A stretch of 52,234 nt of DNA, from positions 1 through 52,234 of the forward strand of contig DVHU01000111.1 in NCBI GenBank assembly GCA_018711815.1, in the 5' to 3' direction. Below the pieces are notes generated by a model. The model made no database searches. It was not told the DNA's origin and saw only the letters and a program-made list of their open reading frames with translations. Source of the DNA: Candidatus Egerieimonas intestinavium (GTDB taxonomy: Bacteria > Bacillota > Clostridia > Lachnospirales > Lachnospiraceae). Shown here one piece after another: positions 27,452 to 51,511 of the stretch. The position numbers and the translations under genes were made by a program. Positions within the stretch are counted from its first letter, which is position 1. Each line of letters opens with the position of its first letter.

Positions 27452-27551
27452 AAAGAGGATGTTGCATTATCCGATATTCTCGTATATTTATGCAGTTGTA
27501 CTCAGCCTGCATAAATATACGGAAATATTCGTTAATTGCAACATCCTCTTT
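27452..27551. repeat. Nested double palindrome between convergent genes (element 2)
   Basis: The outer arms AAAGAGGATGTTGCA (27452-27466) and TGCAACATCCTCTTT (27537-27551) are perfect 15-bp complements. An inner perfect 15-bp pair, CGTATATTTATGCAG (27481-27495) and CTGCATAAATATACG (27507-27521), encloses TTGTACTCAGC. The outer part matches element 1 (12246-12292, other strand), with the 51 bases 27480-27530 as an insertion. It probably terminates both flanking genes. Confidence 0.9.
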
Positions 27552-48228: not shown

Positions 48229-49335
48229 ATGTACGATTACTTGATTGTGGGAGCGGGCTTGTTTGGGGCTGTGTTTGCCCACGAGGCCATGAAGCGGGGA
48301 AAGAAATGCCTGGTGATTGACAAGAGAAATCACGTGGCGGGAAATATTTATACGGAGGAAGTGGAGGGAATCCAGGTCCACAAATACGGGGCCCATATTT
48401 TTCACACCTCCAACGAGGAGGTCTGGGATTACGTAAATCAGTTCGCCCAGTTCAACCATTATATCAACTCACCGGTGGCGGTCTACAAGGATGAACTCTA
48501 TAATCTGCCCTTTAACATGAACACCTTCAGCCGGATGTGGAAGATCAAGACCCCGGCGGAGGCCAAAGAGAGGATCAGGAGGCAGATAGCGGAGCTGAAT
48601 CTCCAGGGTGAGCCCAGGAACCTGGAGGAGCAGGCGCTGTCCCTGGTGGGACGGGATGTGTATGAGAAGCTGGTGAAAGGCTACACGGAGAAGCAGTGGG
48701 GAAGAGACTGCCGGGAGCTGCCGGCCTTTATCATTAAGCGGCTGCCTCTGCGCTTTGTGTATGACAACAATTATTTCAACGATCCCCATCAGGGAATTCC
48801 GGTGGAGGGCTACACCAGGATGGTGGAGCGGATGCTGGAGGGGGCGGAGGTCTGGCTGCACACGGATTATTTCCGGCTGATGGAGAAGAACCCCGATCTG
48901 GCCCAGAAGGTGGTCTTTACCGGCCCCATCGACGCCTTCTACCAGTACCGGCTGGGCGTCCTGGAGTACCGCTCCCTGCGCTTCGAGGAGGAGCGGCTGG
49001 CCTGCGATAACTATCAGGGAAATGCGGTGGTGAACTATACGGAGCGGGAGGTGCCCTACACCCGGATTATCGAGCACAAGCATTTTAATTTTGGACAGCA
49101 GCCGGTGACCGTGATCACCCGGGAATACCCGGAGGAGTGGAAGAAGGGTTCAGAGCCCTATTACCCCATCAACGACGAGAAAAACAGCCAGCTTTTTGCC
49201 CAATATCAGGAGCTGGCCAATCAGGAGCAGCGGGTGATTTTCGGCGGCCGGCTGGGCATGTATCAGTACTATGATATGGATAAGGTAATTGCCGCCGCCC
49301 TGGAGGCAGTGAGGAAGGAATTTGACCGGAGTTGA
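48229..49335 (+). CDS. glf: UDP-galactopyranose mutase
   Basis: 368 residues. FAD-binding start DYLIVGAGLFGAVFA, the flavin/substrate segments HKYGAHIFHTSNEEVWDYV, KGYTEKQWGRD and FGGRLGMYQYYDMDKVI. It converts UDP-galactopyranose to UDP-galactofuranose for cell-surface glycans. With the phosphoregulatory genes at 42722-45643 it supports synthesis of a galactofuranose-containing polymer, though they are separated by putP and truA. AGAGGAG precedes the start. Confidence 0.96.
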   Translation: MYDYLIVGAGLFGAVFAHEAMKRGKKCLVIDKRNHVAGNIYTEEVEGIQVHKYGAHIFHTSNEEVWDYVNQFAQFNHYINSPVAVYKDELYNLPFNMNTFSRMWKIKTPAEAKERIRRQIAELNLQGEPRNLEEQALSLVGRDVYEKLVKGYTEKQWGRDCRELPAFIIKRLPLRFVYDNNYFNDPHQGIPVEGYTRMVERMLEGAEVWLHTDYFRLMEKNPDLAQKVVFTGPIDAFYQYRLGVLEYRSLRFEEERLACDNYQGNAVVNYTEREVPYTRIIEHKHFNFGQQPVTVITREYPEEWKKGSEPYYPINDEKNSQLFAQYQELANQEQRVIFGGRLGMYQYYDMDKVIAAALEAVRKEFDRS

Positions 49336-49357
49336 CCGGCGGAGGGAGCAGGAAGCA

Positions 49358-49978
49358 ATGATACGGAAAACGATAAACAAAAAGCAGCAGGAAATTGCCC
49401 TGGAGTGGCCGGAGAGTTTCTACGGGGTCTCTGACCGGGCTATCCGCAAAGCCGCCCTGGAAAAACAGATTGAAAAGGGGGAGGAGCCGGAAGCCAACCG
49501 GCTTCGGATGGAGCTGTGGGAGAAGCGCTATAACCGGAGAGGGAGAGACCCGGAGGGGATCGACTATTTTATCCGGGCGTGGCTGTCCATGAAGTACATC
49601 TACAATAACCGAAACGGCGTCTTCTACGGAAGAAAGATGCAGAGGGACCTGCGCAAGATTCAAGAAGAGCTCTGTCTGGATTGGGGCCGGGAGTCCGGCA
49701 GCCAGAGGGAGCAGGTGCTCTACGACGAGCTGTACCATCTGGGCGGGTGCTATATCGACCTGTGCCTGTCGGATAAAAGCTACAGCTCCATCATCATGGG
49801 AATGGGACAGATGAAGGCCTCCACCCTGCAGAATAAGATTGGCCAGGAGATTCTGGCCCTGGCCTACCAGCTGCCCAAGCTGGCCCGGATGGAGAAGGAA
49901 TTTCAGATACTCACCCAGGCCCTGACGGACTGCTACAATGAGAAATTTCCCGATGCCCCGGTAAATCTGGATGCGTAG
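49358..49978 (+). CDS. Conserved hypothetical soluble protein
   Basis: 206 residues, highly charged, helical by appearance, with no signal peptide or membrane span. Recognisable stretches are EWPESFYGVSDRAIRKAALE, DYFIRAWLSMKYIYNN and CYNEKFPD at the end. I recall similar Lachnospiraceae proteins under a DUF label (perhaps DUF6553) but cannot confirm it. The ATG at 49358 follows GGAGGGAGCAGGAAG, and an upstream GTG/TTG would overlap glf. It lies 22 bases after glf and is probably co-transcribed. It is followed by the 0.9-kb repeat region. Confidence 0.75.
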   Translation: MIRKTINKKQQEIALEWPESFYGVSDRAIRKAALEKQIEKGEEPEANRLRMELWEKRYNRRGRDPEGIDYFIRAWLSMKYIYNNRNGVFYGRKMQRDLRKIQEELCLDWGRESGSQREQVLYDELYHLGGCYIDLCLSDKSYSSIIMGMGQMKASTLQNKIGQEILALAYQLPKLARMEKEFQILTQALTDCYNEKFPDAPVNLDA

Positions 49979-49994
49979 AGGGATTGAAGGGTTT

Positions 49995-50120
49995 GAGTTT
50001 CCTGGGGATCTGCGCATTTGTGGAGTCGGTATGTAAGAAGAGTTAGAGCTACCTGGGGATTTGCGCATTTGTGGTGCTGGTATGCTAAAAGAGTTAGAGC
50101 TTCCTGGGATCTGCACATTT
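49995..50120 (+). repeat. 51-bp tandem repeat A (two full copies and part of a third)
   Basis: Copies begin at 49995, 50046 and 50097. The common core is CCTGGGGATCTGCGCATTTG followed by TGG. The third copy runs into hairpin H1 and is its left arm, so these repeats look like tandem duplications of a hairpin arm. Confidence 0.85.
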
Positions 50121-50208
50121 GTGCTCAGCCTGCGCTCACTTCGAGCCTATGGTCTCGAAGATGTGCTCGGCGAATTCGCACAAATTGCGCAGATCCCCAG
50201 GAAGCTTT
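50097..50208. repeat. Large hairpin H1 with conserved 54-bp core
   Basis: The left arm from 50099 (GCTTCCTGGGATCTGCAC) pairs with the right arm ending at 50205 (reverse complement GCTTCCTGGGGATCTGCGCA) with small bulges. The core 50124-50177 forms a tip stem CTTCGAG/CTCGAAG around CCTATGGT. The core recurs in reverse at 50662-50715. Confidence 0.88.
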
Positions 50209-50218
50209 CTCTTTTCCA

Positions 50219-50360
50219 GACACTACGGAATTGGCTAGAATACCAGAGGTGGGGAAGTCATTTTTTTAGACACTACGGAATTGGCTAGAATGCCAGAGGT
50301 GGGGAAGTCATTTTTTTCAGACACTACGGAATTGGCCAGAATGCCAGAGGTGTGGGAAGC
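50219..50360 (+). repeat. 50-51-bp tandem repeat B (about 2.8 copies)
   Basis: CACTACGGAATTGGCTAGAA begins at 50221 and 50271, and a copy with GGCCAG at 50322. Each continues with a CCAGAGGTGGGGAAGTC-like stretch and seven T. The third copy breaks down after 50350. Confidence 0.9.
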
Positions 50361-50388
50361 TTTTACGTTAAGGAGAAGCGGTAGAATT

Positions 50389-50515
50389 GCAAAAGCCGGA
50401 AATGTGGGAGTGTTTTTTGTTTTAAGGCAGGAATTGTGGGGCAGCAAAAGCCGTAAATGTGAGAGTGTTTTTTGTTTTAAGGCAGGAATTGTGGGACAGC
50501 AAAAGCCGGAAAACT
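50389..50515 (+). repeat. 55-bp tandem repeat C (about 2.3 copies)
   Basis: Copies begin with GCAAAAGCCG at 50389, 50444 and 50499. Both full copies contain GTGTTTTTTGTTTTAAGGCA then GGAATTGTGGG. Confidence 0.9.
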
Positions 50516-50634
50516 AAGGAGATTTTCATTTTAGGAAAAAATGTAGAATAGAGATAGGTTCGGCGAGAAGAGGGAAGCCTTCATTTTCGCGAACAAATTT
50601 TAAAGAATTCAAGAACGTCTCGGAGACAGGGAAA

Positions 50635-50740
50635 GGTCTTGTGGATTTATGCGGTTTGTACGAATTTGCCGAGCACATCTTCGAGACCATAGGCTCGAAG
50701 TGAGCGCAGGCTGAGTACAAACGCATAAATCCACAAGACC
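50635..50740. repeat. Large hairpin H2, inverted copy of the H1 core with different arms
   Basis: GTCTTGTGGATTTATGCG (50636-50653) pairs perfectly with 50722-50739, then after one bulged G TTTGTAC pairs with GTACAAA (50715-50721). The core 50662-50715 is the reverse complement of 50124-50177 at 53 of 54 positions. The outer arms are unrelated to those of H1. Confidence 0.92.
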
Positions 50741-50742
50741 CT

Positions 50743-50880
50743 CTACTTCTCGAGAGTAACCTGCACTTCGTCTATTTCTCGAGAGTAACCTGTACTCCCT
50801 CTATTTCTCGAGAGTAACCTGTACTTCGTCTATTTCTCGAGAGTAACCTGTACTCCGTCTATTTCCTGAGTACAGCACCT
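50743..50880 (+). repeat. 29-bp tandem repeat D (four copies and a partial fifth)
   Basis: Units start at 50743, 50772, 50801 and 50830, and a degraded one at 50859. Each holds the palindrome TCTCGAGA and AGTAACCTG. There are no unique spacers, so it is not a CRISPR array. Confidence 0.92.
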
Positions 50881-50887
50881 AAAGTTC

Positions 50888-51511
50888 TCAGCACTCCTCC
50901 ATGACCTCCCTCAGCCGCTCCAAAATATGCCAGGTCATGAAGTAAACGGTCTCAAAGTGCATATAGTCCAGGATGTTTTCGTCGTACATGAATTTCAGGC
51001 TGGGAGGGAATTCCTCGTCCGCCTCCCAGAACTGGAAGGTCACCGCCAGGAAGGGGAAGGCCCGCAGCCGGGCGGTGACATCCCCCACCAGCTGGATTGG
51101 CTCTCCCAGGGCCCGGCAGGCGGCCTTTAAGGCCGGAAGATTTTTCTGGAATCCTTGGGCCACTTCCTGGAACATGCCGCCCTGAACCGCCAGCGTTTTG
51201 GTCACTCCCTTTACCGCATGGAGGGGACAAAATTTGTCCGCCGGGCGGCAGTCCGCCTTAGAATAGCAGAGCACATCGTAGATGGTCATGGATTCGTTAT
51301 AATTTGCCTCCTGGGAGGAGCAAAATCCGTCTTCTGACCATTCCACAGTTCCATTTTCCCGGTTAATCCGGTAATCTCTGGATACAAAGGTAAGATACAG
51401 GAAATCATCGTCACAGGAGAGGCCAAATTTTTGGATCATCTTCTCCTGATTATATTTCACAAATTCACCGCGCATCCGGTCGCGCATAAGCTCATAGTTA
51501 GACTTCTTCAT
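50888..51511 (-). CDS. DUF3786 domain protein
   Basis: 207 residues, soluble. The family pattern is visible as YLTFVSRDYRINRENGTVEW, then MTIYDVLCYSKADCRP and a C-terminal segment FMYDENILDYMHFETVYFMT. DUF3786 proteins are found in anaerobes, often near corrinoid or C1 genes, but the function is not established. Four cysteines (FCSSQ, LCYSK, DCRP, FCPLH) lie within about 35 residues and could bind a metal. The start at 51511 is 23 bases after the DUF1292 stop, so the two form an operon. Confidence 0.82.
   Translation of the reverse strand: MKKSNYELMRDRMRGEFVKYNQEKMIQKFGLSCDDDFLYLTFVSRDYRINRENGTVEWSEDGFCSSQEANYNESMTIYDVLCYSKADCRPADKFCPLHAVKGVTKTLAVQGGMFQEVAQGFQKNLPALKAACRALGEPIQLVGDVTARLRAFPFLAVTFQFWEADEEFPPSLKFMYDENILDYMHFETVYFMTWHILERLREVMEEC

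What the first reader, a model, noticed from the sequence alone, without database searches (positions are those of the whole stretch)
50097..50740. Two large hairpins share a 54-bp core in inverted orientation but have different outer arms
Seen directly: 50124-50177 and 50662-50715 are reverse complements at 53 of 54 positions. Each core is enclosed by its own long outer stem (about 25 bp in H2, about 25 bp with bulges in H1), and these stems are unrelated in sequence. A conserved centre inside swapped stems is not what simple duplication gives. It suggests a modular structured element, such as a small mobile element or a protein- or RNA-recognised hairpin, whose arms are acquired or maintained independently.
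Basis: seen in the sequence. Interest (0 to 1): 0.78.

Follow-up and report, generated by a model that had tools for sequence, protein, structure and literature searches.

The report
Mobile hairpin that lodges in terminators
The two hairpins are two copies of a previously undescribed small mobile DNA family in gut Lachnospiraceae bacteria: an almost invariant folded core, repeated up to about 80 times per genome, that has repeatedly inserted into the loops of existing hairpins (often terminator-like), so that each copy ends up inside different but well-paired arms.

Summary
In detail: 50124-50177 and 50662-50715 are reverse complements at 53/54 positions inside long stems (fold z -9 to -11). 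One detail is wrong: the two stems are diverged relatives, not unrelated (17/26 identical next to the core). This is not a local duplication. A covariance model finds about 78 dispersed copies in this genome, about 40 in each of two Blautia genomes, 3 in each of two Oliverpabstia-type genomes, about 68 and 35 in two unnamed Lachnospiraceae genomes, and none in 392 other family genomes or 397 others of the phylum. The core covaries strongly. Arms differ widely between copies, yet stay paired (about 96% in two genomes). Blautia empty sites explain the swapped stems: at three loci relatives carry a plain terminator-like hairpin where another species has the core unit in its loop; a fourth is an insertion with a 6-bp direct repeat. 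Afterwards cores invert in place, are deleted leaving scars, and arms change in complementary pairs (46 seen, 4 expected), as template switching predicts. No RAYT/Y1 transposase, Rfam family or autonomous partner was found. Best reading: a new non-autonomous hairpin element (MITE/REP-like) with a taste for hairpin loops. Its enzyme and any RNA role remain unknown.

The parts
50088..50215 (-). H1: whole hairpin element (covariance-model hit 50096-50206, minus strand)
   Evidence: Folds at -69.9 kcal/mol on the minus strand, z -9.6; model R1 112.8 bits, E 1.2e-23
50124..50177 (-). H1 conserved core: CGAATT.GCCGAGCACA, covarying 7-bp inner stem, GAGAC NNNN GGCTC, GTGAGCGCAGGCTGAG
   Evidence: 53/54 complementary to the H2 core; invariant columns across 32 copies and 29 cross-genus copies
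50088..50123 (.). H1 outer arm, 3' arm in the element's orientation; also the third, partial unit of a 51-bp tandem array
   Evidence: the repeat finder I5, D4, D6
50178..50215 (.). H1 outer arm, 5' arm in the element's orientation; ends in a T-rich tract (TTTCTCTTTT) on the plus strand
   Evidence: sequence; pairing
50635..50740 (+). H2: whole hairpin element (covariance-model hit 50633-50743, plus strand)
   Evidence: Folds at -62.8 kcal/mol, z -11.2; model R1 123.2 bits, E 3.2e-26
50662..50715 (+). H2 conserved core
50635..50661 (.). H2 5' outer arm
   Evidence: the repeat finder I4, 22 nt, 95% complementary
50716..50740 (.). H2 3' outer arm
   Evidence: the repeat finder I4
49979..50887 (.). 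Host intergenic region between the 3' ends of two convergent genes (49322-49978 plus; 50888-51511 minus) holding the head-to-head pair H1(-)/H2(+)
   Evidence: the ORF listing; all 7 neighbouring inverted pairs in the genome have this -/+ arrangement

Best explanation
H1 and H2 are two copies of a Lachnospiraceae-specific, non-autonomous mobile hairpin element. Its constant part is a core of about 55 nt with inner arms, about 110 bp in all in Blautia. SHOWN: the unit is present at sites that are empty in relatives. At three compared loci it sits in the loop of a hairpin that in relatives is a plain, terminator-like stem-loop; at a fourth it sits in plain intergenic DNA between 6-bp direct repeats. 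So the outer stem of a copy often belongs to the host site and the core to the element. SHOWN: at orthologous loci the arms differ by complementary paired changes, the core can be inverted in place, and the core can be deleted leaving only its ends in the loop. INFERRED: pairing of the arms is kept mainly by DNA-level template switching at the hairpin, because mismatches show no excess of G.U over A.C. INFERRED: the strictly conserved, asymmetrically mispaired core is kept because an unidentified recombinase or transposase recognises it as folded DNA during transposition.
For: Copy number and range: about 78 copies at home, 44 and 40 in two Blautia-genus genomes, 3 and 3 in two genomes of a second genus, 68 and 35 model hits in two MAGs; only 5 of 397 family genomes and 1 of 398 phylum genomes (the home genome) match. 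Covariation: 24 of 36 pairs change on both sides, 113 cells against 34 in shuffles, 0/500. Cross-genus invariants CGAG.A, GAGAC, GGCTC, CAG with quite different arms. Insertion: L120/L141 carry it, while L160, G438 and G453 have a clean empty site with one CTGTTA, and G028, G451, G454 lack it. Loop insertion: at site L102, G445 has GGAGGGGGCTGTCGCA|AATGCGACGGTCCCCTCC against nearly the same stem interrupted by the element in G384; site L110 likewise; at site L108 six species have a plain stem-loop there. T- or A-tracts at 33-44% of stem bases against 5-10% in controls. 3'-end location: 31 convergent, 30 tandem, 6 divergent contexts. In-place inversion L161/L175. Concerted arms: 46 complementary double changes against about 4 expected. 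G.U 20 against A.C 33 in arms. Template switching is known to homogenise arms and invert spacers (PMC8604942, PMC8794818).
Against: No transposase, autonomous partner or element-linked gene was found. Direct repeats were seen at one site only; loop insertions show no clear target duplication. At site L106 the relative lacks both stem and core, so larger units may also move or be lost. No empty site could be compared for the home genome, since no second species of its genus was held. Arms in the two MAGs have short conserved outer motifs (ACA|G...C|GTCCGTC), suggesting that part of the outer arm is element-borne there. A simple scan called no terminator at H1 or H2 themselves. The double-change count is not corrected for shared ancestry of some locus pairs.
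Confidence: 0.7

Rival explanations
1. An ordinary DDE-transposase MITE: terminal inverted repeats plus a structured middle, mobilised by an unseen insertion sequence. The long outer palindromes are simply its terminal inverted repeats, and arm variety is old divergence with selection for terminator function.
For: A 6-bp direct repeat at site L120; many copies share GGGGCTGYYGCAWTTA ends; about 110-165 bp, no consistent ORF, intergenic; at L106 a relative lacks stem and core together.
Against: At three sites those outer ends are already present in relatives without the core, so they are not the element's ends there. No paired end repeats at insertion-sequence distance in G384. Middles of MITEs are not usually the most conserved part (own knowledge).
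Confidence: 0.2
2. A structured RNA or bidirectional terminator whose stem-tip is bound by an RNA-binding protein; copies spread by duplication and arms covary through RNA selection.
For: Strong covariation; location near gene 3' ends; T-tracts at some stem bases.
Against: No excess of G.U over A.C in the arms (20 against 33), which RNA selection on one strand would give; 19 of 46 double changes are transversions that cannot pass through G.U; no Rfam match; no strand bias relative to genes; patchy, multi-copy distribution and empty sites look mobile.
Confidence: 0.1
3. A REP/BIME element mobilised by a RAYT (Y1) transposase.
For: Small palindromes at gene 3' ends, neighbouring inverted pairs arranged head-to-head (7 of 7).
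Against: No Y1 family hit in the home genome (87.5% complete), G384 (100% complete), G435 or G436; no GTAG foot.
Confidence: 0.03
4. A local inverted duplication with no wider meaning.
For: H1 and H2 are 434 nt apart in inverted orientation.
Against: About 78 copies genome-wide, relatives in several genera, covariation.
Confidence: 0.01

Closest known systems
Bacterial MITEs (ERIC, RUP, BOX, SPRITE, QMITE and others; review PMC10969869)
   Same: 100-200 bp, non-coding, intergenic, dozens of copies, fold into hairpins, some nested in one another; SPRITE is terminator-like
   Different: Here the middle, not the ends, is conserved; the outer ends are site-specific and in three cases pre-exist as a host stem-loop; no partner transposase found
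REP/BIME elements and RAYTs (PMC3733652)
   Same: Palindromes near gene 3' ends, head-to-head pairs, conserved mispairs in the hairpin
   Different: Much longer (about 110-165 bp against 20-40 bp), no GTAG foot, no Y1 transposase in four carrier genomes
Insertion sequences that target REP hairpins (ISPsy8, IS621, ISPpu9/10, ISPa11; PMC1525189)
   Same: Insertion in a hairpin; for ISPsy8 at its symmetry axis
   Different: Those are full insertion sequences with a transposase entering a repeat family; here a tiny non-coding hairpin enters varied stem-loops
Group IIC introns (own knowledge; PMC4424553 found, not read)
   Same: Associate with transcription terminator stem-loops
   Different: Ribozyme with reverse transcriptase, inserts beside rather than in the loop; no such RNA match here
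Template-switch homogenisation of inverted repeats (PMC8604942, PMC8794818)
   Same: Arms corrected to match, spacer inverted in place
   Different: A mutational process, not an element; described mainly for short repeats, here proposed for arms of 40-55 bp in a mobile family

Membership tests
MITE | Short, non-coding, dispersed, multi-copy | tested here: met
   about 78 copies, no consistent ORF
MITE | Empty site and target-site duplication | tested here: inconclusive
   Sites without the element at four loci; direct repeat CTGTTA only at L120
MITE | Element-specific terminal inverted repeats shared with an insertion sequence | tested here: inconclusive
   Outer repeats pre-exist at three host sites; inner ends CAGRGAATATT are inverted repeats, but no autonomous pair was found in the one genome searched, G384
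REP/RAYT | Y1 (PF01797) transposase in the genome | tested here: not met
   Absent in G000, G384, G435, G436
REP/RAYT | GTAG tetranucleotide at hairpin foot | tested here: not met
   Feet are varied; in the MAGs ACA|G...C|GTCC
Known structured RNA | Rfam match above gathering score, or a convincing weak match | tested here: not met
Intrinsic terminator | GC-rich stem, short loop, T-tract | tested here: inconclusive
   Empty sites look like terminators; T/A-tracts at 33-44% of copies; none called by simple scan at H1/H2
Phage- or plasmid-borne element | Copies in phage, viral or plasmid records | tested here: not met

The most novel reading that the evidence does not exclude
A new class of mobile DNA that moves as a folded single strand and integrates at hairpin tips through an unidentified recombinase, so that host terminators act both as its docking sites and as its outer stems.
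Probability: 0.22. Interest if true: 0.85.

Novelty: new variant of a known kind. Interest (0 to 1): 0.64.

Why it matters
It gives a natural experiment, with over 250 copies in seven genomes, on two open questions: how tiny elements without a transposase spread, and how long hairpins keep their pairing while their sequence changes. The same loci in sister species show plain hairpin, filled hairpin, inverted core and deletion scar, so insertion into hairpin loops and template-switch repair can be tested directly. It also warns that compensatory changes in bacterial hairpins need not mean RNA function.

Tried and rejected
RAYT/Y1 mobilisation: family absent in four carrier genomes. Known RNA family: none. 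Phage, plasmid or viral origin: no match. Arms as captured guide or spacer sequences: outer arms of 22 copies from one MAG have only their own two places in that genome (next best E 0.23), and the arms tested have no phage match. Arms replaced by conversion from other copies: arm-to-arm matches are short except at orthologous loci. One-stranded RNA selection: no G.U excess (the raw excess of A.C came largely from mispaired positions next to the core). Autonomous partner with the same inner ends in G384: none at insertion-sequence spacing. Literature searches found no description of this element in the held library.

Full report
WHAT WAS CLAIMED. Two hairpins at 50097-50740 share a 54-bp core in inverted orientation but have different outer arms. 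The core claim is right: 53 of 54, and both hairpins fold far better than shuffles. The claim that the arms are unrelated is not right for these two copies: beside the core 17 of 26 bases agree and most differences are transitions. Further out they differ.

IT IS A DISPERSED FAMILY. BLAST with H2 gave about 40 places in the home genome. A covariance model built from 32 copies gave about 78 copies. Of 397 genomes of the family only five match: the home genome, two species of one genus (G028, G384, 44 and 40 matches) and two of another (G140, G431, 3 each). Of 398 genomes of the phylum only the home genome matches. Viral contigs, phages and plasmids gave nothing.

ANATOMY. Across genera the constant letters are CGAG.A on the 5' side, GAGAC and GGCTC around a four-base loop, and CAG on the 3' side. 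The inner stem and outer stem covary: 24 of 36 pairs have double changes, 113 cells against 34 in shuffles. The mispaired positions between them are nearly invariant, which points to recognition by a protein or to a defined fold. In the two MAGs (68 and 35 model hits) 63 copies were read: nearly all have 40-55 bp arms that differ widely from copy to copy, with only a weak shared consensus, and are about 96% Watson-Crick paired beyond the first eight pairs.

WHERE IT SITS. Home copies lie between convergent genes 31 times, tandem 30, divergent 6, with no strand preference (genes taken from simple ORF calling). All seven close inverted pairs are head-to-head (-/+), like H1 and H2. T- or A-tracts lie at the stem base of 33-44% of copies against 5-10% in control places.

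WHY THE ARMS DIFFER: EMPTY SITES. In Blautia, orthologous loci with and without the element could be compared. Site L120/L141: element present in G384 and one MAG, clean empty site in L160, G438 and G453 with a single CTGTTA that is doubled around the element; G445 keeps the ends but lost the middle. Site L102: G445 has a plain stem-loop GGAGGGGGCTGTCGCA-AATGCGACGGTCCCCTCC, G384 has the element in its loop. Site L110: the same with G445. Site L108: six species have plain, differing stem-loops; two have short remnants; G384 has the element. L160 shows one element nested in the tip of an older one. So the outer stem is often the host's own hairpin, and a constant core in swapped stems follows directly. 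For H1 and H2 themselves this is inferred by analogy, because no relative of the home genome close enough for an empty-site comparison was held.

WHAT HAPPENS AFTERWARDS. The core is inverted between L161 and L175 with the flanks unchanged. Scars holding only the element's ends occur at several sites. Arms at orthologous loci change in complementary pairs: 46 against about 4 expected if the two sides changed independently (some locus pairs share a genome, so the count is not fully independent). In L249/L294, 13 of 44 pairs changed on both sides while the flanks differ by 9%. Mismatches in arms are not enriched for G.U over A.C (20 against 33), so selection on one RNA strand is not the simplest cause. 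Template switching at inverted repeats is known to homogenise arms and invert spacers (PMC8604942; PMC8794818), and fits both facts. That it is the cause here is inferred.

HOW IT MOVES. Not shown. RAYT/Y1 is excluded in four carrier genomes. No autonomous partner with the same inner ends was seen in G384. I think it most likely that a recombinase or transposase supplied in trans recognises the folded core, and that hairpin loops are favoured targets because they expose single strands. This step is inference.

CLOSEST KNOWN. It works like a MITE or REP-like element, but it fails the REP/RAYT tests and the MITE tests are only partly met (see table). Insertion sequences that strike REP hairpins are the nearest precedent for the target choice (PMC1525189).

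VERDICT. Confidence 0.7 in the element-plus-hairpin-loop account; about half that in template switching as the main keeper of arm pairing.

Noticed in passing
window 49986-50123, 50212-50362, 50389-50498, 50739-50854: The intergenic region is packed with minisatellites: 51-bp units (3, reusing the H1 arm), 50-bp (3), 55-bp (2) and 29-bp (about 4), the last starting right at the H2 arm.
   Followed up: partly
L092 about 1700-1880: Another long palindrome with a different core (GACCGTTTCCGGTCC...GGACCGGAAACGGTC) followed by GTCCGTCC in an Oliverpabstia-type genome; possibly a second hairpin family.
   Followed up: no
L153 against L138 and L146: An insertion of about 260 bp made of unrelated repeats (GCACTTAGCG...AAGCAAG) in one Blautia species, absent from two relatives.
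   Followed up: no
G435 and G436 contig ends: Many copies lie at contig ends, so short-read assemblies break at the core and copy numbers are probably underestimates.
   Followed up: no
window 27473-27528 minus: A weak model hit (25 bits, E 0.07) elsewhere in the window, perhaps a decayed copy or a plain hairpin.
   Followed up: no
L124, L129, L244, L249, L294 and other copies of the two MAGs: Short conserved motifs just outside the arms, ACA|G...C|GTCCGTC or GTAAATG...CTCAAC, in two types; meaning unknown.
   Followed up: partly
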